NCBI RefSeq assembly: GCF_029714325.1
Contig: NZ_CP121666.1
Span: 1,054,001 to 1,118,000, forward strand
Source of the DNA: Bradyrhizobium sp. CB1717
Lineage (GTDB): Bacteria; Pseudomonadota; Alphaproteobacteria; Rhizobiales; Xanthobacteraceae
Reading direction: 5' to 3'
DNA: 64,000 nt
Numbering within the stretch: position 1 is the first letter of the stretch; the number at the start of each line of letters is the position of its first letter. The notes under the pieces were generated by a model. That model saw only the letters and a program-made list of their open reading frames with translations. It was not told the DNA's origin and searched no databases. Position numbers and translations under genes: made by a program. This document shows positions 18,401-45,616 of the stretch, piece after piece.

Positions 18401-18592
18401 TTAGACCGGGGCAGTCAATTCGACCGGCCGCCAATTCAGGTAGGTGCTTCCAGTCCTTCTCAGCGATACTCCTTGATCGCGCCCTTGAGAATCTGAGCCT
18501 CTCGGGAGCGAAGGTGGCCAGCCTCAGTCTTCGAGGACGGGCTGGCCACCGAAGTTAGCGGCTCAAATCCATAGGGCAGTACGGGCCAACCG

Positions 18593-19007: not shown

Positions 19008-19080
19008 TGAAGTTAGCTGTGCGTAGCAAGGACAGCGCTCATCGGTCCACTTTAAGCGCCGGGCCACGTGCCGCTAACTT
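19008..19080. repeat. MITE-like inverted-repeat element, copy 2
   Basis: A 73-bp unit starts GAAGTTAGCTGTGCG and ends CCGCTAACTTC. It shares GGACAGCGC and GCGCCGGGCCACG with copy 1 in the same order. The upstream bases (CCGTG.TGAAG) also match between the copies, so the unit may extend a few bases to the left. Confidence 0.55.
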
Positions 19081-19333
19081 CTACTATGGGTCCGAATGAA
19101 CGGGGATGATCGACGGGACAAACCATCGCCAGTATTTGGACCGGGCTTTTGGTCAGCCGGGGGAGGCCGCATCGAGCGATCCGCTGGGGAGACGGGCGGG
19201 CCTCTCAACAGGCTCAGCAACGCGATGACGGAGCAGCAACGCGTGGCATCCGGCGGCGTTAGCTTCGGTTGCGACGCCGCTTCCACCGCGGCTCCCTGCG
19301 GTGTCCGCCAATTCGATTGCTTCTTTAATCTTA

Positions 19334-20265
19334 GAGCCTGACTCAAAATTGCATTGCTGATTTTATCGCTGCGATGCGCCTTGTCATGAGTTGGACAGAG
19401 GCGAGGAAGAGCCAGGCAGTTGCGCTTTCGATGGTTCGCTCGAAGTCCTTGGCCAATCTGCGGTTGCGGCCGAGCCAGGCGAAGGTTCGTTCGACCACCC
19501 AGCGGCGCGGAAGCACCTCGAAGCCCTGTGCGGCATCGGAGCGCTTGATGATCTCGACAGTCCACCGGCCGATCTTTTCCAGCACCGCCTTGAGCTTTTC
19601 GCCGGCATAGCCGCCATCGACGAAGATATGGCGCAGCCAGGGGAAGCGGTAGCGAATGCTGCACAGGACATCTGGCGCGCCATCGCGATCCTGGACGTCG
19701 GCAGCGTGAACGATCGCTCCGACCAGGAGCCCTTGGGTGTCGGTGACGATGTGGCGCTTTCGACCCTTGATCTTCTTTCCCGCGTCGTAGCCGCGAGGGC
19801 CGCCACTTTCCGTGGTCTTGACCGATTGGCTGTCGATCACGCCGGCCGTCGGCGAGGCCTCCCGGCCGATCGCCTCGCGCGCCAGCATCAGGAGTGCGTG
19901 GTTGATCGATTGCCACAATCCGTTGTCGCGCCACTGGTAGAAATAGTACTGCACCGTGGTCATTGGTGGAAACAGAGTCGGCGGCAGCATGCGCCACGGC
20001 AATCCGCCGCGCAGCAGATAGAGCACGGCCTCGACGATGTCGCGATAGCTCCATTTCGGGCGCCGCCCGCGCTTGGCCCGCACAGGAAGCAACCTCTCCA
20101 GCACGCCCCATTCCGCATCCGTCAAGTCGCTTGGCAAACGCAGCTCCTCTCGGGCAAACTGTGCCCGGGTGATATCAGTCCACATTCTCGATCCCTTTGA
20201 TGCTTCGCAACACCGATGGAATCAGAACTCGCTGATATCACTCAACTTATTTTTCGGTCGGACAC
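19334..20265 (-). mobile_element. IS5-family (IS427/IS1031-like) element, copy B, inverted
   Basis: The ends are the same as copy A but reversed: GAGCCTGACTCAAAAT on the left and TTTTTCGGTCGGACAC on the right. The flanks are TTA on the left and TAA on the right, so the 3-bp duplication is not identical. That hints at a rearrangement, or at a 2-bp TA duplication for this insertion. Confidence 0.85.
19343..20185 (-). CDS. IS5-family transposase, copy B
   Basis: A 280-residue intact DDE transposase, near-identical to the copy at 17.5 kb. Visible differences are FVDGGYAGEKL, RRWVVERTF and IAAIKSAMQF in place of FADGG, RRWAVERTF and IAAVKTAMQF. The catalytic aspartates and the ERTFAWLGRNRRLAK region are preserved. 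Together with copy A it brackets about 930 bp in a composite-transposon-like arrangement. Confidence 0.92.
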   Translation of the reverse strand: MWTDITRAQFAREELRLPSDLTDAEWGVLERLLPVRAKRGRRPKWSYRDIVEAVLYLLRGGLPWRMLPPTLFPPMTTVQYYFYQWRDNGLWQSINHALLMLAREAIGREASPTAGVIDSQSVKTTESGGPRGYDAGKKIKGRKRHIVTDTQGLLVGAIVHAADVQDRDGAPDVLCSIRYRFPWLRHIFVDGGYAGEKLKAVLEKIGRWTVEIIKRSDAAQGFEVLPRRWVVERTFAWLGRNRRLAKDFERTIESATAWLFLASVQLMTRRIAAIKSAMQF

Positions 20266-27911: not shown

Positions 27912-28500
27912 TTTCAGTGATTTATTAACCGCTGTTCACTAGCATCAAATGCTGGCGGGCAACAGTACACGCCCTGACGCTCGGCTGCTCAATCCGTGAG
28001 CGGAACAGACTCTAGTCCTTTTGCCCCGAGGTCGTATGCGCCGTATAGATGGGCCGATGCGGGGCCCTTGGGGAAAGAGGAGCAGAACTGCTCAAAGTCG
28101 CGGAAACCTTCATTGCCAATCCCGAGCCAAGCCCCTGCCAGGGGGGAGGAGTAGAGACTCGACGGGAAGCACCTACAGCGGACATCGCCGGGTGAAGGGA
28201 TAGTCCAGACCACGAACGCCGGAAGGGTGACAGGCGACGCGATCGGATCATGAAGCGTTTCAAATCGTCCCGTCAGGCTCAACTTTTCTGTCAGTTCATG
28301 ATCAGGTCGCGAACCTTTTCCACATCCTCTCTCTCGGAGCCGTCACTGCCGACTTCCGTCGTGCTTCGCGCGAGCGAGCCTTTGCGACTTGGCGCGATCT
28401 CCACGACAAGCGCTCGCCGAACCTCGACCTTGGGGCTGCTCCAATTCGTTAACTTGACGGTGCCGCCTTGACGAATCTCCGCGAGCGGCGCCTATATGTA
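27912..28500. other. Intergenic region upstream of the riboswitch
   Basis: No convincing gene is visible. On the minus strand a 58-residue frame (GGTVKLTNWSSPKVEVRRAL to EDVEKVRDLIMN, about 28292-28470) has plausible composition but lacks a start and a known family. The rest holds no recognisable element. Confidence 0.35.
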
Positions 28501-28514
28501 GCCCGTCACGGTCT

Positions 28515-28700
28515 TCCATTCCCGCATCTCGTAGGATGGAAGCTAAGAGGGAACCCGGTGCGCCGGCAACGGCTATTCCGAGGCTGCCCCCGCAACTGTA
28601 AGCGGCGAGCGGTTGTCATCATGGTCACTGGCGCGACAGCGCTGGGAAGGCCGACAGCCGCAGCGACCCGCGAGCCAGGAGACCTGCCGCGACAGAACGA
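28515..28700 (+). promoter_or_regulatory. Cobalamin (adenosylcobalamin) riboswitch upstream of nrdAB
   Basis: The conserved core pieces of a B12 riboswitch occur in the right order. There is AAGAGGGAACCCGGTGC near 28545, GCCGGCAACGG, then the diagnostic TGCCCCCGCAACTGTAAGCG at 28585-28604. GGTCACTGG follows, then the loop GCTGGGAAGGCCGACAG, and finally GCGAGCCAGGAGACCTGCC ending at about 28689 (the B12 box). The nrdA start is about 120 bp downstream on the same strand. Cobalamin riboswitches are known to repress B12-independent isozymes when B12 is plentiful, which fits a class I reductase in an organism whose relatives use the B12-dependent class II enzyme. Confidence 0.92.
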
Positions 28701-28810
28701 ACGTCCTCGGGCGGGGTGCCCCGGTGGGTTGCTTGCAACTGGTGATATTTGCCCGGTCTCCTCGCAAGTCGTCCGCACGGCCCCCAGCCTCAAACATCGC
28801 GGGGTTGCCG

Positions 28811-30748
28811 ATGTCGCCGTCTTACGATTTCGATCAGCATGGTCATCTCATCGAGATGCCGAGTGTGCGGCCGCTCCCAGCGCAGGCCAAGCCTACCACG
28901 CCTGAGCTGTGTCTTGTGCAGCCGCCGCCATCGCCGGCTCCGCTGCCAAGGCCCCTCGCGCCATCGCCAAGGCCGTCTGACCTCACGCTCGATCGGTCGC
29001 GCGACAACCTGCTGACGTCGTTCGGCAAGCTGACGCTGACCGACCGTTATCTGCTCGCCGGCGAAAGCCTCCAGGACATGTTCGCCCGGGTGTCTTGCGC
29101 CTTCGCGGACGATGTTGCGCATGCCCAACGTCTGTATGATGGGATGTCTCGACTGTGGTTCATGCCGGCCACACCGGTGCTCTCCAACGGCGGCACCCCG
29201 CGCGGCCTGCCGATCTCGTGCTTCCTTAACTCGGTGTCGGACTCGCTCGAAGGCATCGTCGGCATCTGGAACGAGAACGTCTGGCTTGCCTCCAACGGCG
29301 GCGGCATCGGCACCTACTGGGGGAATGTTCGCTCGATCGGCGAGAAAGTGAGGGGCGGCGTCACCTCGGGCATCATCCCGTTCATCCACGTCATGGACGG
29401 CCTGACGCTGGCGATCAGCCAGGGCTCGTTGCGGCGCGGCTCGGCGGCGGTCTATCTCGATATCCACCATCCCGAGATCGAGGAGTTCCTCGAGATCCGC
29501 AAGGCGTCCGGCGACTTCAACCGCAAGAGCCTCAACCTACATCACGGCATCAACGTCACCGACGAGTTCATGCGTGCCGTGGGTGCCGGCACCACGTTCG
29601 CTCTGCGCAGCCCGAAGACTAACGAGGTCGTCCGCGAGATCGATGCCCGCCAGCTGTGGCAACGTATCCTTGAGAACCGGCTGCAGACGGGCGAGCCTTA
29701 TCTCTTGTTCATCGACACCGTGAACCGCGCGCTCCCCAAGCACCAGCGCGAGCTCGGCCTCAAGGTCTCGACCTCCAACCTGTGCAGCGAGATTACGCTG
29801 CCGACCGGCATCGATCATCGCGACGAGGAGCGCACCGCGGTGTGCTGCCTGTCGTCGCTCAACCTCGAGACCTGGGACCAGTGGAATAAGGAGCCCGGCT
29901 TCATCGAGGACGTCATGCGCCTCCTCGACAACGTGCTCACCCACTTCATCACAGTGGCGCCGGACGGCATGAAGCGTGCCCGCTACGCCGCCCTGCGCGA
30001 ACGCTCCGTTGGCCTCGGCGTCATGGGCTTCCACTCGTTTCTCCAGGCCAAGGGCATTCCGATGGAGAGTGTCCTGGCCAAGTCGTTCAATCTGAACATG
30101 TTCCGAAAAATCCGTCGCGATGCCGACGCGGCATCCGTGGCGCTCGCTCGCGAGCGTGGCCCGTGCCCGGATGCCCTGGAACGCGGCGTGATGGCGCGCT
30201 TCAGCCACAAGATAGCGATCGCGCCGACCGCCTCGATAAGCATCATCTGCGGCGGCACCAGCGCCTGCACCGAGCCAATCCCGGCCAACATCTACACCCA
30301 CAAGACGCTATCCGGCGCCATCTCGGTGCGTAATCCGCATCTCGCCAAGGTGCTGGCCGCCAAGGGCGCCGACACCTCGGCGACCTGGCAGTCGATCATC
30401 GCGCACGAGGGGTCGGTCGCCCATCTCGACATCCTGTCGGAGCACGAGAAAGCGATCCTTCGCACCGCCTTTGAGGTCGACCAGCGCTGGATCGTCGAGC
30501 TTGCCGCCGATCGCGCCCCATTCATTTGCCAGAGCCAGTCGATCAACCTCTATCTGCCGGCCGACGTCGATAAGTGGGACCTCCACATGCTGCACTGGAC
30601 GGCATGGAAGCGTGGGGTGAAGAGCCTCTACTACTGCCGTTCAAAATCGATCTCGCGCGCGGCGTTCGCCGGCAAGATTGCCGAGGATGACACGGCAACG
30701 CCGGCGCCGCAGCGCACCGACTATGAGGAGTGCCTCGCATGTCAATGA
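28811..30748 (+). CDS. nrdA: Ribonucleoside-diphosphate reductase class I, alpha subunit
   Basis: The catalytic subunit of class I ribonucleotide reductase, which converts ribonucleoside diphosphates to deoxyribonucleotides. The 645-residue product starts after the riboswitch; the upstream extension of the frame (from 28613) overlaps the riboswitch and is not used. A proline-rich N-terminal 60 residues lacks an ATP-cone. The core shows FMPATPVLSNGGTPRGLPIS with the active-site cysteine at about 137 (SCFLN), STSNLCSEI with the Asn-x-Cys-x-Glu trio, and AVCCLSSLNLETW with the second redox cysteine. RERSVGLGVMGFHSF and IAPTASISIICGG follow. The tail YEECLACQ provides the C-x-x-C thiol shuttle. 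The gene overlaps nrdB by 10 bp. Confidence 0.95.
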   Translation: MSPSYDFDQHGHLIEMPSVRPLPAQAKPTTPELCLVQPPPSPAPLPRPLAPSPRPSDLTLDRSRDNLLTSFGKLTLTDRYLLAGESLQDMFARVSCAFADDVAHAQRLYDGMSRLWFMPATPVLSNGGTPRGLPISCFLNSVSDSLEGIVGIWNENVWLASNGGGIGTYWGNVRSIGEKVRGGVTSGIIPFIHVMDGLTLAISQGSLRRGSAAVYLDIHHPEIEEFLEIRKASGDFNRKSLNLHHGINVTDEFMRAVGAGTTFALRSPKTNEVVREIDARQLWQRILENRLQTGEPYLLFIDTVNRALPKHQRELGLKVSTSNLCSEITLPTGIDHRDEERTAVCCLSSLNLETWDQWNKEPGFIEDVMRLLDNVLTHFITVAPDGMKRARYAALRERSVGLGVMGFHSFLQAKGIPMESVLAKSFNLNMFRKIRRDADAASVALARERGPCPDALERGVMARFSHKIAIAPTASISIICGGTSACTEPIPANIYTHKTLSGAISVRNPHLAKVLAAKGADTSATWQSIIAHEGSVAHLDILSEHEKAILRTAFEVDQRWIVELAADRAPFICQSQSINLYLPADVDKWDLHMLHWTAWKRGVKSLYYCRSKSISRAAFAGKIAEDDTATPAPQRTDYEECLACQ

Positions 30749-31812
30749 TCGATCTGTCGTCCGTCGATCCGCGCACGCTGATCGGCAAGGGGCGCGTCGG
30801 CCTCCTTGATTCGACCGGCAGCTATGACGTCGATCGCTACGCCTGGGCTTACGAGTTCTGGAAGCGCCAGCAGCAGACCCACTGGATGGGCGAAGAGGTG
30901 CCGCTCGGCACCGACCTCAAGGACTGGGCGTCGGACCGCGTCACCGCCAACGAGCGTGCGCTGCTTACCCAGATCTTCCGTTTTTTCACTCAGTCGGACA
31001 TCGAGGTCGGCGACAACTATCTCAAGCGCTACATCCCGATCTTCCAGCCGCTCACCGTCCAGATGATGATGGCCGCTTTCACCAATATGGAGACGGTTCA
31101 TATCGACGCCTATGCGCTGCTGCTCAAGACGCTTGGTATGCCCAAGACCGAGTTTGAGGCATTCCGCGGCTATGCGCAGATGCGCGCCAAGGCGGACTAC
31201 ATGCACGAATTCGGCGTCGACACCGTGGCCGATGTCGCCCGCACCCTGGCGATGTTCGGAGCCTTCACCGAAGGCATGGCCTTGTTCGCGAGCTTCGCCA
31301 TGCTGCTCAACTTCCCGCGCCACAACAAGATGAACGGCATGGGACAGATCGTAAGCTGGTCAGTGCGCGACGAGAGTCTCCACTGCGAGGGCATCATCAA
31401 GCTATTTCACGAATGGCACCGCGAAACCGGCGCGGTGACGCGCTCCGTCCGCGACGACATTGTCGACGTCGCCAAGACCATGGTGAACCTGGAGGAGAAC
31501 TTCGTCGAGCTCGCCTTCGGCCTTGGCAAGATCGAGGGCATGCTGCCTGAGCACATCCACGCCTACGTCCGCTACGTCGCCGACTGGCGACTGACCCAGC
31601 TCCGGATTGCCCCGGTCTTCGGCTTCTTCGAGGCGAAGGAGGGCGGGTTCACACAGCTCAAGGCGCATCCGCTGCCGTGGCTCGTCGAGATTCTCAATGG
31701 CGTCGAGCACGCCAATTTCTTCGAGCAGCGCGCCACGGAGTACTCCAAGGCGGCGAGCCGCGGCAGCTGGGACGGCGAAAACGGGGTGTGGGCGGCTTTC
31801 GGCCGTATCTAG
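30739..31812 (+). CDS. nrdB: Ribonucleoside-diphosphate reductase class I, beta subunit
   Basis: The radical-generating subunit paired with NrdA, 357 residues. The start at 30739 is supported by GAGGAG eight bases upstream; ATG 30745 would give the classic ATGA overlap but lies farther from it. The ferritin-like ligand set is visible: Asp87 in FTQSDIEVGDN, then Glu118-x2-His121 in METVHIDAY with Tyr125 four residues beyond, the position of the radical tyrosine in class Ia/Ib enzymes. The second pair is in FTEGMALFASFAM and SVRDESLHCEGI. The metal cannot be told from sequence. Co-translated with nrdA and under the same riboswitch. Confidence 0.94.
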   Translation: MSMIDLSSVDPRTLIGKGRVGLLDSTGSYDVDRYAWAYEFWKRQQQTHWMGEEVPLGTDLKDWASDRVTANERALLTQIFRFFTQSDIEVGDNYLKRYIPIFQPLTVQMMMAAFTNMETVHIDAYALLLKTLGMPKTEFEAFRGYAQMRAKADYMHEFGVDTVADVARTLAMFGAFTEGMALFASFAMLLNFPRHNKMNGMGQIVSWSVRDESLHCEGIIKLFHEWHRETGAVTRSVRDDIVDVAKTMVNLEENFVELAFGLGKIEGMLPEHIHAYVRYVADWRLTQLRIAPVFGFFEAKEGGFTQLKAHPLPWLVEILNGVEHANFFEQRATEYSKAASRGSWDGENGVWAAFGRI

Positions 31813-34991: not shown

Positions 34992-35005
34992 TCTGACGGC
35001 AAGAT

Positions 35006-35890
35006 TTGACTGGCAGGGAATGGAGCTGCGGGTTCAATAACACGCGTAAGGCGCTTATCCGTGATGCGCTCGTCGGCTTGATCGACCAGATCGATGCGGA
35101 CATCCGAGCCGTTCGCGCGGGCGTCGGCGCGGATGCAGATCCGCGGGAACAAATTAATCGCGACGTATGGAGCGCCATCCGTGAGCACACGAAGCAGATT
35201 GAAGTGCTGCTCGGGTCGAGCGTGCAGAAGCCGGCGCGGTGGTGGTCCGACATGATGCGGCATATGCATTTTGGATATGTCGGCGACCTTCATGATATAG
35301 AAGCGATGGATTGGCCGGACGTAAAGAACACCTTGCGGAAGGGACTTTACGGCGTCAACGAGGCGGTTCCCGTTGAGGTCGAGGACTTGTCGGCCTTGGT
35401 CGCGGCGCGGCCAACTGGGCCGATCACGACGGCATTGGCGTGGTCAAAAATCGAAGACCAGGCTTTCGAATGCCTGATTTTCACGCTCATCAGCGACACG
35501 CCGGGATACGAGAATCCTGAGTGGCTGATGCAGACGCGAGCGCCTGACAAAGGTCGGGATCTATCGGTGGTGCGCGTGATCCAAGACGAGCTGTCGGGCA
35601 CGCTGCGGCTTCGTGTCGTGATCCAATGCAAGCATTGGACGAGCCGTAGGGTGAGCCTCTCGGAGGTCTCGTCGACGAAGGATCAAATGGCGCTTTGGCC
35701 CAATCCTCGAGTTGACGTCCTGATCATAGCAACCAGCGGGCGGTTCACCGCCGATGCTGTGACGTGGATCGAACAGCACAATGCGAATGGCGCATCGCCG
35801 CGCATCGAGATGTGCCCCGAGAGCCATCTTGAACGCCTCCTCGCCGCTCGGCCCGCCATCATTGCGGAGTTTGGTCTGCGGGGACACTGA
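35006..35890 (+). CDS. Mrr-like restriction endonuclease, PD-(D/E)XK type
   Basis: A 294-residue protein is read from a TTG at 35006; better starts are absent, so the N-terminus is unsure. The first 140 residues form a helical region (for example RDALVGLIDQIDADIRAVRA and REQINRDVWSAIREHTKQIE) without a recognised family. The C-terminal half is nuclease-like: IEDQAFECLIFTLISDTPGY supplies the leading helix, TRAPDKGRDLSVVRV the catalytic aspartate, and LRLRVVIQCKHWTSRRVSLS the Q-x-K motif, followed by VDVLIIATSGRFTADAVTWI as in Mrr_cat proteins. It is predicted to cut DNA, perhaps modified DNA. It is convergent with a minus-strand gene cluster holding three more proteins with similar motifs. 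Confidence 0.7.
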   Translation: MTGREWSCGFNNTRKALIRDALVGLIDQIDADIRAVRAGVGADADPREQINRDVWSAIREHTKQIEVLLGSSVQKPARWWSDMMRHMHFGYVGDLHDIEAMDWPDVKNTLRKGLYGVNEAVPVEVEDLSALVAARPTGPITTALAWSKIEDQAFECLIFTLISDTPGYENPEWLMQTRAPDKGRDLSVVRVIQDELSGTLRLRVVIQCKHWTSRRVSLSEVSSTKDQMALWPNPRVDVLIIATSGRFTADAVTWIEQHNANGASPRIEMCPESHLERLLAARPAIIAEFGLRGH

Positions 35891-36003
35891 CGCGCGGACG
35901 CGCTGGAACGATCAGTGAAAGCTGCGCGCTTTGACCTTGATCGTGTCGTTGTACAAGTCCGGAGTGTCGATGTCGCGAGTTTGTAGCCCCTTGGGTGTCC
36001 GGC

Positions 36004-37014
36004 TCAGTCGATCTGAACGCGCGCGCTATCGGGCGGTAGTAATTTTCCTACACTCACCTTGACGGTGATCGTGTGGCGCGGAAGCACGGTGATTGTGGTG
36101 GGCGCTATGGCCTCCTCGTGTACATCATCAATCAGGTCGCGGATTGCCTGCTGGTCTCCGGTGACGATGCGCCTGACGCGGTCATTGTCCCGGGGCTCGG
36201 CCAGAATTGGACCGCTTCGCATCAGGCCGGAGAAAGATCCATGATGGGAGCGTGGAGTAAAGTGCTCGATGATGAACCAGGTAAACGGTAGAGCGGAACG
36301 AAATGCCTCGTCGTGCAGACTAACAAAGCCCGTGGGCTTACCTTCCATCGATCGAAGCCAGATACCGGCGTCGATTCCGCCGTTGTTGACCAAGGTGTCT
36401 CTTAGCGCCAGCCCGGTTCCGAAATCGAAGATCTGGCCACTTAAGTTTCGCGTGTGAAGGGCGCGCACTTGGGTACGGGTCGTGTCCGGAATCTTCGGAG
36501 TTTGAGGACAATAGAGGCCGCACAGGAGCGCGCCCTTGCCAAGAATCGAAGAGAGCCGGTCGAGCCGGGTTTGTTGCTCCGCATCGACGGCTTTGAAGTT
36601 TGCCCGCTGGTCGTACTCGCCAGAATTCGGGTTACGAAAAAGCCGCTTTGCCTGAACGAGATAGGCCGTGGACCAGCTTTCTTCGGGAAGGATGTTGTTT
36701 TCATAAGAGAGCACGAGACCGAAATCGGACTGGGAAACGTGGCGCTCCATCGCCGTGTTATGAGGATACGTATCGAGCACGACTTCGAAACCGAGGCCGT
36801 CGCCAAGGGAACCAAGGTCGGCGTTGAGCTGGTCTAGGCTATAGGGGAGATTTTCCTCGCTCCGCTGAGTTTCTATATCGAGCAGGGCGCAAAGCTCGTT
36901 GGTAAGAGCCGGTTCATCCGGTGGGTGTTTGCGGAGCATCCGCTGAGATAAAGCGTAGTCGATGCCGTCGAGGTATTGGATGACGTGCTTGAGGTGCTGC
37001 GGTCCGAACATCAT
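36004..37014 (-). CDS. Unknown protein with a PD-(D/E)XK-like motif
   Basis: A 336-residue protein with no family I recognise. A nuclease-like motif is suggested by PALTNELCALLDIE (helix with glutamate), SQSDFGLVLSYENNILPEES (aspartate) and STAYLVQAKRLFRNPNSGEY (Q-x-K with a following arginine), in the spacing and order of PD-(D/E)XK enzymes. The C-terminal part (from about residue 180) carries LSGQIFDFGTGLALRDTLVN and VSLHDEAFRSALPFTWFIIE and looks like a separate domain. It is the last gene of a co-directional row after two Mrr-type genes, with an 80-bp gap. The function assignment is inference only. Confidence 0.5.
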   Translation of the reverse strand: MMFGPQHLKHVIQYLDGIDYALSQRMLRKHPPDEPALTNELCALLDIETQRSEENLPYSLDQLNADLGSLGDGLGFEVVLDTYPHNTAMERHVSQSDFGLVLSYENNILPEESWSTAYLVQAKRLFRNPNSGEYDQRANFKAVDAEQQTRLDRLSSILGKGALLCGLYCPQTPKIPDTTRTQVRALHTRNLSGQIFDFGTGLALRDTLVNNGGIDAGIWLRSMEGKPTGFVSLHDEAFRSALPFTWFIIEHFTPRSHHGSFSGLMRSGPILAEPRDNDRVRRIVTGDQQAIRDLIDDVHEEAIAPTTITVLPRHTITVKVSVGKLLPPDSARVQID

Positions 37015-37094
37015 GCTGCTTCTTGTTACTGCGCTTCGTTTTGAGCGGCGCGAGGGTTTTAACTATTGGCTTTTCGTCGCCTTGCCGCGGGCGG

Positions 37095-37916
37095 CTATAA
37101 GGTATCCGCAAATAGAATACGGGGGAGGGTGTCGGTAGGCGTCCAAGCTCCAAGCGTACGCCTGACATAGGACTGGCAGAGGGCGATAATTTTGTTGGCG
37201 ACGAACAAGTTGCCGCGATTTCTGTACGTCCGGAAAGGGCTGGTACGGTGTATCCGGAGCTGGATAAGAGAAGACCAGGGCTTTGCGCCGTACGGCATGA
37301 CCACCTCAACGAAGGGCTCCAGAATGTCGGAGCCCGGTCTCGATGGCGCCTTCCAGTGCTTGATCTCAACGAGATAGATCACAGGCTGGCCGGCCTCGAC
37401 GCAGCGCAGTTCCAAATCGAAGCCGCCGTCGCGTCCCGGGCGTGTGACCAGAACGTTGAACCCCAATCCCGAAAGAACCTCGCCCAGCAATCGTTCGAGG
37501 TCACGCCACTCGACATGCACCAGGTAATCGGGGCTACAAACGATTTCCTGAGCTAAGGCTTGCAACATGGAACGCAAGGCACGTTCGACGATTGCCCCCG
37601 GAGCTTCATCTTGGTCGCGCAGCGCTTCCTGTTGTTCCGAAATATAGCGCTTCAAACGGGGGCGGCCGCCGTTGGTCGGCCACACGATTCGGCCGTTAGC
37701 GTCTTCGGCTTGCGCCCGTTCAAAAGTGAATCGCCAGTGCCGGCCGTTCGGAGGAAGATGTCCCCTCCAGTCGTATTGAAGGCGTGGCCGCACCCCATGA
37801 ACCGTGCGATCGGCAAGCAAATATGGTCCGCGAGAATCATTGTCGGGATTGCGATAGCGGTCTGAATTGGGGACCGATCGGCGCTCGCCTGACCGGTGTG
37901 TGTCTTGAACGCTCAC
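37095..37916 (-). CDS. Mrr-type endonuclease fused to a methyltransferase-tail-like segment
   Basis: A 273-residue protein from a GTG three bases after the stop of the previous gene. Residues 30-95 read GPYLLADRTVHGVRPRLQYD, WRGHLPPNGRHWRFTFERAQ and DANGRIVWPTNGGRPRLKRY. That is the segment usually found after the catalytic part of type-III-like DNA methyltransferases ('GR.WrfS.ekm..Ld.eGRI.wp..g.PrlKrYldE'). The C-terminal part is an Mrr-like nuclease: WRDLERLLGEVLSGLGFNVL, VTRPGRDGGFDLELRC with the aspartate, and YLVEIKHWKAPSRPG with E-x-K, and then PFVEVVMPYGAK. No methyltransferase catalytic motif (DPPY, FxGxG) is present. Confidence 0.68.
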   Translation of the reverse strand: MSVQDTHRSGERRSVPNSDRYRNPDNDSRGPYLLADRTVHGVRPRLQYDWRGHLPPNGRHWRFTFERAQAEDANGRIVWPTNGGRPRLKRYISEQQEALRDQDEAPGAIVERALRSMLQALAQEIVCSPDYLVHVEWRDLERLLGEVLSGLGFNVLVTRPGRDGGFDLELRCVEAGQPVIYLVEIKHWKAPSRPGSDILEPFVEVVMPYGAKPWSSLIQLRIHRTSPFRTYRNRGNLFVANKIIALCQSYVRRTLGAWTPTDTLPRILFADTL

Positions 37917-38452
37917 GATTTATCCCTCGCTGTCCGGCCAATTGCCGCCAGTTCGGAGATCGGCGATATCGGTTGAGTCCTTGGGCATTTGTAACGACAT
38001 GTGCCAATCTCGAGGCAGGGTTCGCTTCGAAACGAACTCGACGCGCTGAATTGCAGGTGCTTCGGACGACCCGTACTCGACTCTTTGTGCATCTTCGAGA
38101 GGGATCATTTCTGGCTCGACCCAAAGAGCCACCCCGAGGAAAACGTGACCCAGCAAATGAGTGCTGCCGCCATGGTCGATCACCACGTTGCCGGAATATG
38201 GAACACGCGCGGTTCGAATGATCGGCGGAGCACCCTTCGAAATGTCGCCGAAGGGATTCAGTGCCGCTTGGACTTCCTGCCAAACATCATTGAGTGACCA
38301 AGTGGACCCGTCGTCTGCGTTTCGAAAGATAGGTGCGAATAAGTCAGTATCTTCCGGCAAAGTGAAGTCGAATTCATCCGGCGGTGTTGTGCCAGGCTCG
38401 TCCGGGCGAAAGGTTTGAATACCGCCCCCTGCAAAGGCGCACGCTTTGTGCC

Positions 38453-39336
38453 GATTTTGTTGCAAAAGTCGGTTGAGACGGGCCGCGAAGCGTGATTCCG
38501 TTGTGTTGAGGCGAATCTCGGCGAGGTCGATCCATGATGGGCCGTCTGAAGAGTGACCAAGGTCAACTGTTCTACGAGTTTCGCCTTGGCGACGCGGTTC
38601 CTGAAGATCATCTGGTGCGGAAGATCGATGCTGCTCTCGATCTGTCCTGGCTTCGCGGTGAACTAGCATCTCACTATACATCGATGGGGCGCCCGTCGAT
38701 CGATCCGGAGCTGATGATCCGGATGCTGATCGCGGGGTATGTCTTTGCGATCCGCTCGGAACGGCTGATCTGCCGTGAAGTGAAGGTGAATCTCGCCTAT
38801 CGATACGAGCCGACCGGCGACGTCTACCACTGCCCGGGTGGCAAGCGGCTTGCGACGAGCGGTACCGTGCACGAGGGCAAGACCCTTCTGTATCGTGCAA
38901 ACAAGCTCGACTGCGATGGATGCCCGCTCAAACCGCAGTGCTGCCCAAAAGAACCATCACGCAAGATCCCGCGCGATATCCATGAGCATGCCCGAGACGT
39001 TGCCCGGGCGCTCGCAGGCACCGAGGGCTTCGAGCTGTCTCGGCGTCAGCGCAAGAAGATCGAGATGCGGTTCGCACACTTGAAGCGCATCCTGAAGCTT
39101 GGTCGGCTCCGACTGCGTGGTCCGCGAGGTGCCCAGGATGAGTTTGTTCTAGCGGCCATCGCCCAGAACCTGAGGCGGTTTGCATCGCTGGTCGCGCGAC
39201 CGCCACCGGCTCAGGCGCTGCGCATCGCGTAGCGTCGAAGTTGCGTAAAATGCGTCAGGGCCAGCGCTTCAGAGCGCGGCTATCAACGAAAGGCCCAACG
39301 GCCAAATCCGTTGCAGCCGACTTTTGCAACAAAATC
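38453..39336 (+). mobile_element. IS1182-derived non-autonomous element with TGCC target duplication
   Basis: Terminal inverted repeats GATTTTGTTGCAAAAGTCGG (38453-38472) and its exact complement (39317-39336) are flanked on both sides by TGCC (38449-38452 and 39337-39340). At 884 bp it is about half the length of a full IS1182 element, because its transposase gene carries a large internal deletion. It must have moved using a transposase supplied elsewhere, or been deleted after insertion. Confidence 0.88.
38534..39232 (+). pseudogene. IS1182-family transposase with in-frame internal deletion
   Basis: The 232-residue frame starts MMGRLKSDQGQLFYEFRLGD and follows the family through RGELASHYTSMGRPSIDPEL to VFAIRSERLICREVKVNLAY. 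It then jumps directly to YEPTGDVYHCPGGKRLATSG and the cysteine-containing CDGCPLKPQCCP, ending with HLKRILKLGRLRLRGPRGAQ. Roughly 200 residues carrying most of the DDE core are missing at the junction, so the product is inactive even though the frame stays open. Confidence 0.85.
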
Positions 39337-39757
39337 TGCCAGAAGATCACGAAATCCAGCTTCAAGAGCTGATTGATATCTGCGACTGAGAATTCCGACG
39401 CCCGCCGAAGCGAAATGCCATGCTGCAGTGCTACGGCTTCGGCCTCGGGCGAAAAACCTGATGCACTGACTGCTATGGTGCGGTCTGCGCCGATTGCTTG
39501 GCGTTTGGCCGCCAGCTGTTCGATCCAGGTGACATCCTGTTTCTTGCTTCTCCGCCGACACTCTACCGTGATGAGGAGCTCCGAAGTCCCGGCTCTGGTG
39601 CGGATGCTCGCGTCGACCTCGCGAAGCCGGCCCGTGACCCTGCATTTGATCCGGTCGGGGGACTTTACGACCATGCCGGTCGGGCCGGCGTCGGCCTCGA
39701 TCCGCGCAACCAAACGCTCGAACTCGCGCCATTCGGGATCTTGGCGGGGTCGCGCAG

Positions 39758-40988
39758 TCACTCCTCGCTGCCTTTCTTTTTCGCCGCCGCGTTCAGAAAC
39801 ATCGGAAAGAAGCTTCGCTGCGTTTTCACCTTGATGACATCGTTGACGCCGATCGTATTTGCCTTCCTCCTCTCGCCGCCGGCTGGAGTGATTACCTCCA
39901 AATCCGGATTCTCGATGATCGCCGCATGAACATCCTCTGCATGCGCAGGGGTGACGTTGTAGATGCTCTCGTAGAAGTCGATTACGGACATGGCATCGCC
40001 GGATTCCGTCACGAGGCGTGGAATGTCTCCCAAGAGTTGGTCCTTTGCGGACGCTCGACCTTTAGCGTCGAACAAGTAGAGCATTCCCTCATCGTGCCTG
40101 GGGTCATAGGACAGCATATTGAGGCCCGAGCGACCGAAATGCGCCTGGAGGCTCGCATTGTCATGAAGGATGTTGTTGTAGACCTGCCGTGCCCGATAGG
40201 CGTTGGCGAAGTGGATCAACCAATACCTCCATCCGCCTGGATTGTTGATCGAGAAGGGACTGACGTAGGGCGCGCATAGGCGAAAGGCGTCGAAGACAAT
40301 CTTCTCTGCAGTTCCCAGCCAATCGTTCTTGCTCATCAAGCTATTGAGCGCATCGATGCTCGCGCTCGTCAGCCCAAGATGAGCAAGTCGTGTTCTCAGC
40401 TGTTCCGGCTGGTTTTTCTGCAGGAAAGCGAGCAGCGAACTGATCATAAAAGTGTAGAAGATTTCTGCAGCGGGATAGGAGTGCATGATGTCGAGGAGCG
40501 TATCCCTCTCGACATGACTGTCGCCGCCTTGATCCAGGTTGAAGATGACGCTCCGATACCGCCCTTGTTCAAGTAGCGTCTTGATCTGCGGGTATGCGGC
40601 CTCGAAAAACTCGTTCAAATACTCGACGCGCAAGTGCAGCTTCGGGCATCTGGGAGATGGCAGCTTGCATCGGCGCGACATCGTTGAAGATGAGAAGGCA
40701 TTCGACCTCGATCGCGCCAAGGCCTTGTACTGACCGATGTGTGTTTACCGCCTCGACAGCGCGTTGCAATTCTTCAATGAATATCAGCGGTGATCCAGGT
40801 GTGCCGCACTGGTATCGTCCGCCGCCCGCAAAGCCGTCCACAATTGCAAGCCGAAATCGTTCTTGCTGCGGCAGCCGGCAGCGGACGCTAAGATAATCGA
40901 AGACGTATTCGCGCAGGATTTTGTGTTTGCGCTTGGAATGCTCTTCGAGCTTTGCACCATCAGCCCATTCGCATGGTGTTTCTACCAC
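39758..40988 (-). pseudogene. tcmP: Three-Cys-motif partner protein TcmP, one frameshift
   Basis: The N-terminal frame starts at 40988 with WADGAKLEEHSKRKHKILRE, then the family signature RLAIVDGFAGGGRYQCGTPG and SPLIFIEELQRAVEAVNTHR, up to MPEAALARRV. The continuation is in the next frame: VEYLNEFFEAAYPQIKTLLE, YRSVIFNLDQGGDSHVERDT through GLNMLSYDPRHDEGMLYLFD to FPMFLNAAAKKKGSEE. One base near 40630 is gained or lost. Without it the product would be about 410 residues, normal for TcmP. TcmP proteins are encoded beside DUF5131 three-Cys-motif proteins, as here; their function is unknown. The stop overlaps the next gene's start. A sequencing error or programmed shift cannot be excluded. Confidence 0.75.
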
Positions 40989-41017
40989 GTCGCCCCCATC
41001 CCTCGATGCTCACGCCT

Positions 41018-41800
41018 TTAAGGAATAGCGCTGGGAACGGTGGGCATCTCATCCCACGTACGTCCCCGATACTCGCGTCCGTTTGCTTTTTTTGAGCGCT
41101 TTTTATTGTCTTTGCCCCAGGTGCCCCACTGCTTAAAAAAGAAGGCTGTTCCTGCTGACAAGCATTGCAGATGTATTTCGTCGATCCATTCCTCACGGAT
41201 AGGCCGAGCTGATTTCCCGCTCTCGCCGCCGACGATCGCCCAATCGATATCGCGAAGGTCGACAGGACCGACGGCGCCAATAAGAGGCTCGAAGGAGATG
41301 AACCGTATGGCCGCCGGTGCCTGGCGCAGGTGTCCTATGCGTTCGACCACATCCGCGTTCTCAATACTGGTGCCGAGCCAGACACTCGGCAAGATCTCGC
41401 CAATGCGATTGGCCACCAGCTTAGCCATGCGCTCGGGACGTTTCGTGAGAATCTGGTAGTGATGATGGGGCGTCTCACGCATGACCTGCCAGACGTCGCT
41501 GATGAAGGCGTCGCTCACCCGTTCATGGAAGAGGTCGCTCATCGAGTTTACGAATATCTTGCGGGACTTGCGCCAACGGAGCGGAATCGAAAGCGCTTCG
41601 CGGTCCTCCCGCACGACACCGTTCCAGACCGTGCGCTTCCCGGTTTTGCGAGTGAGCTTGGCATATTTCTCCACACCCATAGCCTCGAGGCGCCGCGCCA
41701 TTTCCATGGCATAGCAATGAGTGCAACCGGCGGTGACGATCGAGCAGCCGGCGACTGGATTCCAAGTGGCATCCGTCCACTCGATCTGAGTTTCAGCCAT
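41018..41800 (-). CDS. DUF5131 / phage Gp37-Gp68 family three-Cys-motif protein
   Basis: A 260-residue protein; the ATG at 41800 has GGAGG six bases upstream, so the earlier ATG at 41812 is rejected. The family opening is clear: ETQIEWTDATWNPVAGCSIV followed by TAGCTHCYAMEMARRLE. The three closely placed cysteines (C..GC.HCYA) resemble an iron-sulphur radical-SAM-like cluster motif. Later KIFVNSMSDLFHERVSDAFI, YQILTKRPERMAKLVANRIG, VWLGTSIENADVVERIGHLR, FISFEPLIGAVGPVDLRDID and WAIVGGESGKSARPIREEWI are family hallmarks. Its partner TcmP follows after 29 bp. These proteins occur on phages and islands. Their chemistry is unproven. Confidence 0.9.
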   Translation of the reverse strand: MAETQIEWTDATWNPVAGCSIVTAGCTHCYAMEMARRLEAMGVEKYAKLTRKTGKRTVWNGVVREDREALSIPLRWRKSRKIFVNSMSDLFHERVSDAFISDVWQVMRETPHHHYQILTKRPERMAKLVANRIGEILPSVWLGTSIENADVVERIGHLRQAPAAIRFISFEPLIGAVGPVDLRDIDWAIVGGESGKSARPIREEWIDEIHLQCLSAGTAFFFKQWGTWGKDNKKRSKKANGREYRGRTWDEMPTVPSAIP

Positions 41801-41853
41801 CTTTTCCTCCATTCAGACTTTGTGTCGGCCGGCGCATCAGACGGTTCCTATCA

Positions 41854-42228
41854 TCACGCGCCGGCCTGTTTGCGACGTCGAGCGGCTGTGTGAACTGTCG
41901 TCCCCGTCTTAACGCCGATGTCGCCGAGTTTCTGGAGGCGAAACGCAGGCCGCGCAGGAAGCTTCACCGTCAGTTCAAGCTTTCCACCAATAGCCTCGAC
42001 ATAGCTTCGTAGCGTCGACAGATACATATCGGTCTGTTTCTCGATCTTCGACACGGAGGGCTGCTTGATGTTGAGCGCGGTTGCGATGTCCTCTTGCGCC
42101 TTGCCGGCGATCTGGCGCAGCTCGCGCAGCCCCTCGACCTCTTCCCGGAGGTTCTGAAAACGCGCCTCGATCTGCTCCTGCTGGTCGCGGGGCAGCGCAG
42201 CGATGATATCATCCAGTTTCCGACCCAT
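41854..42228 (-). CDS. XRE-family antitoxin (HigA-like)
   Basis: A 124-residue protein. After MGRKLDDIIAALPRDQQEQI there is a coiled helical stretch, then the Xre helix-turn-helix LRQIAGKAQEDIATALNIKQ and PSVSKIEKQTDMYLSTLRSY, continuing VEAIGGKLELTVKLPAR. This is the standard architecture of HigA-like antitoxins that bind both operator DNA and the toxin. It lies four bp after the toxin gene, so the order is toxin first, as in higBA loci. Confidence 0.88.
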   Translation of the reverse strand: MGRKLDDIIAALPRDQQEQIEARFQNLREEVEGLRELRQIAGKAQEDIATALNIKQPSVSKIEKQTDMYLSTLRSYVEAIGGKLELTVKLPARPAFRLQKLGDIGVKTGTTVHTAARRRKQAGA

Positions 42229-42232
42229 AGGA

Positions 42233-42598
42233 TTATCCCTCCTTTCCGGATTTCAGGCTTTCCAGATGTTCGGAAAACCGATTATCCGCCTTTGCGATAA
42301 GCTGCTTATAGAAGCGCTTCTGGCTACCGCCGGATTTATCGCCTGCGACCAGAACGATGGCCTTCCGTTCCGGGTCGAAAGCGAAGGCAGCACGCCATTC
42401 GCCTTCGGCAGCTGAGAAGCGCATCTCCTTCATGTTGGCGTGTTTCGAGCCCTTGAGCGTATCGACGTAGGGTCGACCGAGCTGCGGGCCGTATTCGGCG
42501 AGCAGTTTGGCGACGGCTAGCAACTCCATCTGGACTTCGCGAACAAATGTTAGAAACTCCGCCTCGAAGGCACCATGCAATCTGACGTCCCAAATCAT
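42233..42598 (-). CDS. RelE/HigB-like toxin (Gp49 family)
   Basis: A 121-residue protein opens MIWDVRLHGAFEAEFLTFVR. It carries LLAEYGPQLGRPYVDTLKGS, KHANMKEMRFSAAEGEWRAA and FAFDPERKAIVLVAGDKSGG, and ends with KRFYKQLIAKADNRFSEHLE. This matches the Gp49/HigB-like branch of RelE-superfamily mRNA interferases. Together with the antitoxin downstream it forms a type II toxin-antitoxin pair, probably autoregulated from the promoter just upstream. Confidence 0.88.
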   Translation of the reverse strand: MIWDVRLHGAFEAEFLTFVREVQMELLAVAKLLAEYGPQLGRPYVDTLKGSKHANMKEMRFSAAEGEWRAAFAFDPERKAIVLVAGDKSGGSQKRFYKQLIAKADNRFSEHLESLKSGKEG

Positions 42599-42693
42599 AT
42601 AGCCTCCAGGCTATGTTCGGTCAATGGGAATCCCGCCAGCGGATCCGCATCAGCGGGTTCAGCGCTGGCGGTTGAGATGGGGCAGGAGGAGGG

Positions 42694-43947
42694 TTATGCG
42701 GCTTCCAGCAGCGCGCTCTTGCGCTTCTTCTTCGTCAGAAGATCGCGGACGAACTTGTCCCACTTGGTCATGGCTGCGCGCTTTTCGGGCATGTAATTCC
42801 AGCGATCGTAGCTCTTAGAGCTGACGTCCTGCAGAGTGTGGTTCTGCAATCGGTCTCGGATCTCTTTCGACAGGCCAGCCTTGCCGGCAAGCGTCTTCCA
42901 TGTGCGACGCAGGTCGCGGTTCGTCACCACAGGGATCACCTCGCGGTCGCGCTGGCGCCACATGAACGAATAGAGCGTGCCATGGCTAACCGGTTTTAAA
43001 GGATCGGTCGCGGAGGGGAAGAACCAGCCATACTCGTTCGGTTTGATCGACTCGATGAGCTCGGCGGCGACCTTAGGCACTGGGATGGCGTGTGGTTTGC
43101 CATTCTTGGTCTTTGACCAGTCGATGATGCGCTCTGCGGCATCCCATTGGTCGACATGCAAGCGGGCGATCTCATCGACGCGCTGACCGGTCAGCATGAG
43201 AATTCTGACTGCGCGGGTGTAGGGCGGGTGGACTGGTGCATCCGGGCATTCGAGCCAGCGATAGAGGCGCAGGAATTCCTCCTCGTCCAGCCAGCGTGTG
43301 CCGACGTTCTTTGGCTCGGTCGGAATGCCGGCAGCAGGATTATAAACGAGACGGAAGCGTCGGGCTGACGTGCTGCGGTAGTCGTGCTCGGACTTCAAAC
43401 CCCAGCTGTAAGCCGATCGGATGTAGCTGCGAACATGATCGGCCATGGCGCGTTTGCCGCGTTCATAGATCGGGCGGATGATGTCCCTAATTTCGTCAGG
43501 CTCGATGTCGCGGGCTGCACGGTTGCGCCCAAGCGTATCGGCGATCTTGTTCAGCCCCTTTTCGACCTCCTTCCAGGACGGCTTCCCATCTGCCTTGAGT
43601 GCGGCGACGTAAGCTTCGAATAGATCCGCAACGGTGCCGGGCCGCGTGTCGCCCGCAATCTTGATGCTGCGTCCCTTCTGGATCATGTCGGCGTAGTCGC
43701 GCTTGAAAATCTCGCGCGCCTGGCTGAGGCTCATGGAAGGGTAAGAGCCGAGTTTTTTCTTAAGGCGCTTTTGGTCACGCCACTGCTGGGCCATCCAGTC
43801 CGCCGTTACGCGGGTTGGCATCGGCTTCATCACGAGGACCAGTCGGCCCGTTCCGTGGCCCTCACCATCGACAAGGCTTTGCTGCTTTCCGGTCTCTTCA
43901 ACCTGTTTCAGAGCGCGGCGAATTTCTCCATCTGTAAGGCTTGGCAC
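42694..43947 (-). CDS. Tyrosine site-specific recombinase (island integrase)
   Basis: A 417-residue integrase with a GTG start after GGGAGAC. The N-terminal part has the arm-binding fold (VKTLGSYPSMSLSQAREIFK-like) and a SAM-like core-binding domain (TVADLFEAYVAALKADGKPS). The catalytic domain shows ILMLTGQRVDEIARLHVDQW with the first arginine, NGKPHAIPVP with the beta-hairpin lysine region, VVTNRDLRRTWKTLAGKAGL for box II, and LQNHTLQDVSSKSYDRWNYM with the late histidine and nucleophilic tyrosine. In box II the usual histidine of H-x-x-R is an arginine (NRDLRR). The gene abuts the truncated radC and is the likely agent that inserted the island. Confidence 0.9.
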   Translation of the reverse strand: MPSLTDGEIRRALKQVEETGKQQSLVDGEGHGTGRLVLVMKPMPTRVTADWMAQQWRDQKRLKKKLGSYPSMSLSQAREIFKRDYADMIQKGRSIKIAGDTRPGTVADLFEAYVAALKADGKPSWKEVEKGLNKIADTLGRNRAARDIEPDEIRDIIRPIYERGKRAMADHVRSYIRSAYSWGLKSEHDYRSTSARRFRLVYNPAAGIPTEPKNVGTRWLDEEEFLRLYRWLECPDAPVHPPYTRAVRILMLTGQRVDEIARLHVDQWDAAERIIDWSKTKNGKPHAIPVPKVAAELIESIKPNEYGWFFPSATDPLKPVSHGTLYSFMWRQRDREVIPVVTNRDLRRTWKTLAGKAGLSKEIRDRLQNHTLQDVSSKSYDRWNYMPEKRAAMTKWDKFVRDLLTKKKRKSALLEAA

Positions 43948-44094: not shown

Positions 44095-44706
44095 TCAATG
44101 TGCTATAGCGTGATCGAGCGGGATCAAAAAGAGCGGAGTGGGATGGTTGTGCACCAGGATCAGCGCGGTCGCCGACAATTCCAGCGCGCGCTTGATCACC
44201 TCGCGTGGATAGACCGGAGTGTGGTCGACGGTGCCGGTCTGCTGCACCTCGTCGGCGATCAGCTGGTTGCGCTTGTCGAGGAAGAGGAGACGGAATTGCT
44301 CCTTGTCTGAAAACGCCATGCTGGTGCGGCAATAGTCGATCACCTCGTTCCAGGACGACAGCGCGTTGCGGCTGTTGACCTCGCCCTTGGCGACGCGGTG
44401 CGCCGCCGCGGCGATCAGCTTGAGCTGGTTGATGGCGGCTTCGCCGACGCCGTCGATCTCGCGCAGGCGCGCCACCGGGGCATGCACGACCTCGGCGAAC
44501 GAGCCGAAGGTCTTGATCAGCGCCTTCGCCAGCGGTTTGGTGTCGCGCCGCGGCAGCGCCGGAAACAGCGCCATCTCCAGCAGCTCGTAGTCGCTGAGCG
44601 CGTCCGCGCCCGCGCTGTAGAAGCGCTCGCGCAGCCGCTCGCGATGGCCGTGATAGTGCGGCGCATCCTCCGGCTTGCTCTTGTCGTGGTCTGGCTTGGC
44701 GGGCAT
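44095..44706 (-). pseudogene. radC: DNA repair protein RadC, 3'-truncated at the island junction
   Basis: The chosen start [11 protein letters not shown] precedes the RadC N-terminal helix-hairpin-helix region ([60 protein letters not shown]). The MPN/JAMM domain follows ([40 protein letters not shown]). It breaks immediately after HNHP, where a normal RadC continues SGDPTPS and about 45 more residues. Here [14 protein letters not shown] follows and then a stop. The third JAMM ligand (Asp) is lost, so any metalloenzyme activity is probably gone. The junction at about 44138 marks the right boundary of the inserted island. Confidence 0.85.
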
Positions 44707-44797
44707 CGGCCGCCAGCATTGCCGCGGAACTCTGTTTTTGCAACCGTCAATTGCGGCGGCGAATCCGGTTCGCGCGGGTCGGCGCCCCCTTAGAGGC

Positions 44798-45616
44798 TCA
44801 CCCGATCTGCTTCTCGCCGTGCCGCTCGGACAGCGTGAAGATCTCGACACCGGTCGCGGTGACGCCGACGGAGTGCTCGAACTGGGCCGACAGCGAACGG
44901 TCCCGGGTGACCGCGGTCCAGCCGTCGGAGAGAATCTTCACATGCGGTTTGCCGAGATTGATCATCGGCTCGATGGTGAAGAACATGCCGGGCTTGAGCT
45001 GCACGCCTTCGCCGGGCCGGCCGATATGGATGATGTTCGGCTCGTCGTGGAACATGCGCCCGAGGCCATGGCCGCAGAAATCGCGCACCACGCTCATGCC
45101 TTGCGGCTCGACGAAGCTCTGGATGGCGTGGCCGATATCGCCGGTGGTGGCGCCGGGCTTCACGGCGGCGATGCCGCGCATCATCGCTTCATACGTCACC
45201 TCGATCAGCCGCTCGGCCTTGCGCGCGATCGGGCCGACCGCATACATCCGGCTGGAATCGCCGTACCAGCCATCGACGATGAAGGTGACGTCGATGTTGA
45301 CGATGTCGCCTTCCTTCAGCGGACGGTCGCCGGGCATGCCGTGGCAGACGACGTGGTTGAGCGAGGTGCAGGTCGAGTAGCGATAGCCGCGATACATCAG
45401 CGTCGCCGGATAGGCGCCATGGCTGAAAGCGAAGTCGCGGACGAATTCGTCGATCTTCGAGGTCGGCACGCCCGGCCCGACGATGTCGGTGAGCTCGTCG
45501 AGACACTTGGCCACCAGCGCGCCGGCCTTGCGCATGCCGGCAAAGGCGGCGGGCCCATGCAGCTTGATCTGTCCGGTCTTGCGCAGGGAGGTATCGGTGG
45601 CTTCGACGTAGCTCAT
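44798..45616 (-). CDS. map: Methionine aminopeptidase, type I
   Basis: A 272-residue enzyme that removes initiator methionine from nascent proteins. All five metal ligands can be placed: two aspartates in [20 protein letters not shown], a histidine in [17 protein letters not shown], and glutamates in [12 protein letters not shown] and [14 protein letters not shown]. The substrate-binding histidine is in [12 protein letters not shown]. The length and single-domain form are those of type I bacterial enzymes. It lies directly upstream of radC on the same strand, an arrangement seen in related rhizobia. It is essential in most bacteria and marks the return to core chromosome. Confidence 0.95.

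What the first reader, a model, noticed from the sequence alone, without database searches (positions are those of the whole stretch)
35006..42598. Candidate undescribed defence island: four nuclease-like proteins with a TcmP / three-Cys-motif pair and a toxin-antitoxin
Within 7.6 kb there are four different proteins with PD-(D/E)XK-like signatures (35006, 36004, 37095, and the split gene 37920/39761), a DUF5131 three-Cys-motif protein, its partner TcmP, and HigB/HigA. Six of the genes are co-directional, with gaps of 3-54 bp and start/stop overlaps (GTGA between tcmP and the split mrr-like gene). Mrr-like enzymes restrict modified DNA, and DUF5131/TcmP pairs are found on phages and islands but have no known job. 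Tight co-transcription suggests DUF5131/TcmP modify DNA or sense a modification that the nucleases read. The proposed link is inference; the gene content is direct.
Basis: partly seen in the sequence, partly recalled or inferred. Interest (0 to 1): 0.88.

Follow-up and report, generated by a model that had tools for sequence, protein, structure and literature searches.

The report
Decayed defence cargo with methylase-like pair
This stretch of a soil bacterium's chromosome appears to hold the partly broken remains of several anti-virus-type genes lying together on a mobile island, more likely than one new defence machine, although some of its gene families look worth testing.

The parts
35006..35890 (+). 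mrrA: 5'-truncated Mrr_cat restriction endonuclease gene (294 aa from a TTG; relatives in two plasmids 392 aa)
   Evidence: PF04471 E 6.9e-8 and PADLOC PDC-M58A; up to 85.6% DNA identity to Agrobacterium plasmid genes; lacks aa 1-102 of relative
36004..37014 (-). pd336: full-length PD-(D/E)XK-like protein, no named family
   Evidence: 67 relatives; invariant E34, D97, Q121, K123; model pTM 0.86, weak RecU/Hjc/PvuII-type matches
37095..37916 (-). mrr273: type III Mod-like segment (aa about 16-99) plus Mrr_cat; open frame, but an altered stretch near the C-terminus
   Evidence: Mod match 6k0w_B 272-367 E 9.3e-8
37920..38452 (-). C-terminal piece of the interrupted mrr-like gene
   Evidence: No Pfam family; one weak match (E 9.1e-4) besides itself in 199 genomes
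38453..39336 (+). IS1182-type element with shortened transposase (ORF 38534-39232), 20-bp terminal inverted repeats, TGCC target duplication
   Evidence: NF033551 203.6 bits, two stretches, below cut-off 270; ends and duplication; one match in genome
39337..39761 (-). N-terminal Mrr_cat piece of the interrupted mrr-like gene
   Evidence: PF04471 E 4.7e-10 on ORF 39255-39761
39758..40988 (-). tcmP pseudogene: three-Cys-motif partner, split over two reading frames
   Evidence: TIGR04474 in both fragments; frames by tblastn; full-length relatives of about 420 aa
41018..41812 (-). DUF5131 (Gp37/Gp68) three-Cys protein, Cys23/Cys30/Cys33, full length
   Evidence: PF07505 E 1.9e-101; PDC-M41B/M30B; Cys invariant in 20 rows
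41854..42228 (-). HigA-like antitoxin
   Evidence: HTH_37 E 7.3e-9
42233..42598 (-). HigB-like toxin (Gp49 family)
   Evidence: PF05973 E 6.5e-21
42694..43947 (-). phage-type integrase beside the right end of the low-GC stretch
   Evidence: PF00589 E 3.7e-9; GC rises from about 0.60 to 0.64 at about 44 kb

Best explanation
Decayed defence cargo beside an integrase in a Bradyrhizobium-like chromosome, made of separate units. One unit is a DUF5131-TcmP module. An intact TcmP relative has a SAM-methyltransferase fold nearest RlmJ; DUF5131 is a three-Cys, possibly radical-SAM-like protein. I infer that together they chemically modify a nucleic acid and act as a stand-alone anti-phage or element-competition module; here it is dead because tcmP is broken. 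The Mrr-type nucleases (three of which may form a group of their own) and HigBA are not readers of a mark made by the pair. Shown: gene identities, breaks, adjacency of the pair elsewhere, TcmP fold, absence of the window's nucleases from the other pair loci examined. Inferred: modification chemistry, defence role, independence in the ancestor.
Against: A TcmP 98% identical and a pd336 89% identical share a listed contig length of 24711, so part of the block probably recurs. tcmP and mrr overlap by 4 bp, which suggests co-translation. Some pairs have no clear defence neighbour (for example L115). L102 has two Mrr_cat genes beside a distant pd336 relative, so the nucleases need not be three separate arrivals. 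Loci were sampled, not exhaustive. I saw no defence test of the pair.
Confidence: 0.7

Rival explanations
1. A true multi-gene modification-plus-restriction system: DUF5131/TcmP mark DNA and the Mrr-type nucleases cut marked or unmarked DNA; this copy is a decayed example of a rare arrangement.
For: Seven co-directional genes with an overlap between tcmP and mrr; probable co-occurrence of TcmP and pd336 on a 24711-bp contig; methyltransferase fold of a TcmP relative; methylase-like segment in the 37095 protein.
Against: No nuclease of these families near the 42 adjacent pairs, one 26-bit match aside; nuclease families without the pair in 28 and 5 loci; pd336 in 1 of 397 order genomes while DUF5131 is in 77 of 397.
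Confidence: 0.15
2. The three co-directional nucleases (mrr, mrr273, pd336) are a linked group of their own; the pair and HigBA only lie next to it. Compatible with most of the best explanation.
For: In L102 an ATPase/Mrr_cat protein (PF04471 E 2.2e-25), an N-terminal Mrr_cat protein (E 7.2e-12) and a distant pd336 relative (155.9 bits) follow one another on one strand, without the pair. mrr273 (80%) and pd336 (89%) relatives are both on a 4076007-bp M. parvus contig, with no TcmP of that contig length among the best 120 of 1857. 3-bp gap between mrr273 and the mrr piece.
Against: No pd336 profile match in the 28 mrr273 loci, and no mrr273 profile match in 4 of 5 pd336 loci. The L102 Mrr proteins are only distant relatives (43 bits to the mrr273 profile; none to the mrr piece at E 0.001). 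Distance on the M. parvus contig unknown.
Confidence: 0.35
3. The DUF5131-TcmP pair is not defence but a mobile-element maintenance or RNA-modification gene pair carried by phages and plasmids.
For: DUF5131 relatives in 159 phage and 406 plasmid records; 20 viral contigs with TcmP; nearest fold is an rRNA methyltransferase.
Against: Several pairs embedded among defence genes; PADLOC candidate status.
Confidence: 0.3

Closest known systems
PADLOC candidates PDC-M30 and PDC-M41 (DUF5131 + TcmP)
   Same: DUF5131 at 332.8 (M41B) and 314.6 bits (M30B); TcmP N-terminal piece at 42.6 bits (M30A)
   Different: tcmP broken here and its C-terminal piece matches no PADLOC model; further genes of the PADLOC systems, if any, were not checked
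RlmJ 23S rRNA m6A methyltransferase (fold of TcmP)
   Different: 13% identity; D165 and G168 invariant, but the DPPY motif (recalled for RlmJ) is not kept; extra C-terminal part with a sub-threshold wHTH match
Mrr-type (type IV) restriction endonucleases
   Same: Mrr_cat in three genes
   Different: One carries a type III Mod-like segment; one is truncated and one interrupted
RecU/Hjc/PvuII-type nucleases
   Same: Weak fold match and residue pattern in pd336

Membership tests
PDC-M30/PDC-M41 DUF5131-TcmP pair | DUF5131 gene | tested here: met
PDC-M30/PDC-M41 DUF5131-TcmP pair | Adjacent intact TcmP gene | tested here: not met
   Adjacent, but split over two frames; so a relic of the pair, not a working member
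PDC-M30/PDC-M41 DUF5131-TcmP pair | Anti-phage activity | not testable with these tools
   PMC10855318 passages give only prevalence among resistant P. aeruginosa strains
Mrr_cat endonucleases (PF04471) | Curated score reached | tested here: met
   33, 31.2 and 40 bits against cut-off 21 for 35006, 37095 and 39255
PD-(D/E)XK nuclease (pd336) | Conserved E, D, (D/E/Q)xK | tested here: met
   E34, D97, Q121, K123 invariant in 29 of 29 rows; assignment to the motif is mine
PD-(D/E)XK nuclease (pd336) | Fold match to solved members | tested here: inconclusive
Radical SAM (DUF5131) | Three conserved Cys near the N-terminus | tested here: met
   Cys23, Cys30, Cys33 invariant in 20 rows; spacing Cx6Cx2C, not the classical Cx3Cx2C (recalled)
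Radical SAM (DUF5131) | Sequence match to radical SAM families | tested here: inconclusive
   TIGR04471 E 2.6e-18, 66.3 bits against cut-off 355; no PDB sequence match up to E 0.1; fold not predicted
RlmJ-like methyltransferase (TcmP) | Class I SAM-methyltransferase fold | tested here: met
   on relative P0147, not on the broken window gene
RlmJ-like methyltransferase (TcmP) | DPPY amino-methyltransferase motif | tested here: not met
   D165 and G168 invariant; the residues between them are not PP in the aligned rows; motif recalled
Linked nuclease plus DUF5131/TcmP system | Recurring co-occurrence in other genomes | tested here: not met
   one probable exception, the 24711-bp contig

The most novel reading that the evidence does not exclude
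The 273-aa family is a stand-alone restriction enzyme that took a target-recognition-type segment from a type III methyltransferase and joined it to an Mrr nuclease, so that it cuts at methylase-type or modified sites without a methylase of its own; in this lineage it was coupled to a DUF5131-TcmP modification module (radical-SAM-like enzyme plus RlmJ-like methyltransferase) that writes a mark which the nuclease set reads.
Probability: 0.12. Interest if true: 0.8.

Novelty: new member of a known kind. Interest (0 to 1): 0.36.

Why it matters
It weakens the idea of a seven-gene system and replaces it with small, testable questions: what the mobile DUF5131-TcmP pair does, now that TcmP can be placed near RlmJ by fold; whether a methylase-derived segment can guide an Mrr nuclease; whether pd336 is a new nuclease family and works with Mrr proteins, as L102 hints. 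DUF5131 occurs in 77 of 397 genomes sampled from the order (it also occurs without TcmP), so its job would matter widely.

Tried and rejected
Rejected: all seven genes as one system (no recurrence). Rejected: 35006 as part of the cluster; it faces the other way, and in the two Agrobacterium plasmids looked at it has other neighbours. In the plasmid search with 35000-42600, 839 records matched, none over 80% of the query; the 15 listed cover at most 22%. Rejected: an att repeat at the right end; only 12-15 bp repeats inside the window. The left end of the island was not found.

Led nowhere: paper searches gave no functional study. One search was swamped by other meanings of TCMP (213 papers, 40 listed); one search listed 10 of 20. 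PDB sequence searches with TcmP and DUF5131 found nothing up to E 0.1 and with pd336 two weak non-nuclease matches. Foldseek on pd336 gave no match at E 0.001. pd336 in 199 genomes of a guessed family gave one 33-residue match of 24.8 bits, judged chance. A Pfam/PADLOC tally of 241 neighbouring ORFs shows only the 25 commonest families of each list; Mrr_cat is not among them, but a single one could be hidden.

Errors: the TcmP C-terminal query was translated in a wrong frame; its few matches were ignored and TcmP was searched with a profile from then on. The mrr N-terminal query (39255-39761) includes a tail read from the IS. In one search all loci were searched but some not printed; one search recounts them.
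Full report
WHAT IS THERE. The window is bases 1054001-1118000 of a 9.23-Mb single-contig genome. At about 44 kb GC rises from about 0.60 to 0.64. A phage-type integrase (42694-43947, PF00589 E 3.7e-9) lies on the low-GC side, next to a RadC-like gene (44095-44850) on the other. The left end is unclear: GC is also above 0.61 at 28-32 kb, where ribonucleotide reductase genes lie. No tRNA is in the window and only 12-15-bp repeats link the boundary to the rest of it. The left 26 kb holds six transposase ORFs.

THE GENES. On the minus strand in transcription order: HigB-type Gp49 protein and HigA (42598-41854), DUF5131 (41812-41018), tcmP (40988-39758), an mrr-like gene (39761-37920, interrupted), a 273-aa Mrr protein (37916-37095) and a 336-aa protein (37014-36004). 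On the plus strand, convergent: an Mrr protein (35006-35890). Gaps are 4, 41, 29, -4, 3 and 80 bp, leaving out the insertion.

HOW INTACT. tcmP matches a full-length relative in two frames, both pieces hitting TIGR04474. The mrr-like gene is cut at 38453-39336 by an IS1182-type element with 20-bp inverted ends, a TGCC duplication, a shortened transposase and no second match in the genome. The 35006 gene begins at residue 103 of a 392-aa relative. The 273-aa gene is open and aligns in one frame at 84% to P0002, but a motif shared by the relatives near its end reads in another frame; the effect is unknown. pd336, DUF5131 and HigBA appear full length. The locus is unlikely to work as a unit today.

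DOES THE SET RECUR? DUF5131 occurs in 77 of 397 genomes drawn from the order, at 91 places. I fetched 60 of the 90 outside the window's genome: the best-scoring ones, with one near-duplicate skipped. Twenty of the 60 have a TcmP profile match, 14 adjacent by single-sequence search, including all 10 closest relatives of the window's DUF5131. None of the 60 matched the window's nucleases or HigBA, by single sequence or with the profile set (recount). I then took 46 loci: those 14, 12 named plasmid loci and 20 viral loci. The two genes are adjacent (under 500 bp) in 42: DUF5131 upstream in 37, opposite strands in 5. None carried the window's nucleases or HigBA apart from a 26-bit match in L129. 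The loci hold 6.6 to 19 kb each, and some TcmP are themselves in pieces (L007) or cut off by the end of the locus (L125). The 12 plasmid loci were picked by me from 40 listed of 406 records, not at random.

FROM THE NUCLEASE SIDE. The 273-aa family has 79 listed proteins, the window's own included. In the 397 order genomes only the window's own matches in full; 31 others match in part, nearly all in the N-terminal segment inside longer ORFs. In 27 genome loci and 1 viral locus, 8 covering the N-terminal segment, none had TcmP or DUF5131 in the up to 8 kb held on each side. pd336 has 67 listed proteins, occurs in 1 of 397 order genomes, the window's own, and in 3 of 265 of the genus, own included. 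Five other loci (two viral, perhaps the same phage; two genus members; one Sphingomonas plasmid) lack the pair. The mrr-like N-terminal piece matched in 5 of 60 relatives, own included, the others at E 1e-14 or weaker; the C-terminal piece has one weak match besides itself in 199 genomes. The 35006 gene has relatives at up to 85.6% DNA identity on Agrobacterium plasmids, beside AbiV or AbiE genes in the two looked at.

RESULTS AGAINST INDEPENDENCE. A 98% TcmP (P0147) and an 89% pd336 (P0080) are both listed with a longest contig of 24711 bp and with JGI among their sources, so a second organism probably has both, with TcmP of full length (422 aa). Equal lengths can coincide: 1632 bp occurs in both nuclease lists, on contigs too short for both genes. 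A contig of 4076007 bp, named as Methylocystis parvus, holds both a 273-aa (80%) and a 336-aa (89%) relative; no TcmP of that contig length is among the best 120 of 1857. I could not read either contig. In L102, two Mrr_cat genes precede a distant pd336 relative on the same strand, a hint that pd336 and Mrr proteins go together without the pair.

NEIGHBOURS OF THE PAIR ELSEWHERE. Hachiman HamA/HamB near two order loci, QatA near one, PDC-S19 near one. On plasmids, by annotation: CBASS genes, AbiE, a type ISP restriction enzyme, helicase, methylase and GIY-YIG nuclease, caspase and dGTPase. Not all pairs are so placed: L115 lies between a helicase and pilus genes; L113 shows DUF5131 without TcmP, an IS3 transposase following. 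L108 and L114 had no annotation. In S. meliloti a TcmP gene, SMa2243, is listed next to the helicase Hna in one table (PMC12445080, one passage); it may be the second, opposite-strand TcmP seen in L108, not the one of the pair.

LITERATURE. Searches with TcmP, DUF5131, three-Cys-motif, PF07505, PDC-M30, PDC-M41, TIGR04474, Gp37Gp68, PF22560 and TIGR04471 found no functional study in what was listed from the held library; most subscription papers and preprints are not held. PMC10855318 (passages) reports PDC-M30 in 32 strains of a 100-strain P. aeruginosa panel, 68.8% of them phage resistant, as an unvalidated candidate. PMC12429752 (one passage) lists TcmP among prophage ORFs. PMC11878078, PMC7387457, PMC3306737 and PMC5463345 were seen in listings only.

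VERDICT. The gene content is real but more broken than described. The best account is decayed defence cargo beside an integrase, with a known-candidate two-gene module as one unit and the nucleases as another or others. The proposed functional link between the pair and the nucleases is not supported by recurrence, with one probable exception that should be read next.

Noticed in passing
window 28492-31812 (+): Cobalamin riboswitch (RF00174, 127.6 bits) at the start of ribonucleotide reductase large and small subunit genes (PF02867, PF00268).
   Followed up: partly
window 2774-25451: Six transposase ORFs (two IS110, a DDE_3, a DUF772, an HTH_38/rve and a DDE_Tnp type); ORFs 17623-18558 (+) and 19074-20111 (-) begin with the same residues, as an inverted duplication.
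   Followed up: partly
L003, L108, L109, L110: A second TcmP-type gene on the opposite strand lies next to the DUF5131-TcmP pair, with a DEAD-box helicase further on.
   Followed up: no
L116, L117, L127, L135, L137: DUF5131 and TcmP are on opposite strands here, yet still adjacent, so adjacency is kept without co-transcription.
   Followed up: partly
L102:6184-9932: An ATPase/Mrr_cat ORF, an N-terminal Mrr_cat ORF and a distant pd336 relative lie in a row on one strand: possibly an undescribed nuclease cluster.
   Followed up: partly
L101:5518-11196: A pd336 relative in another genus member lies downstream of an SMC/AAA-type ATPase ORF; the 335-aa ORF beyond has no Pfam family.
   Followed up: partly
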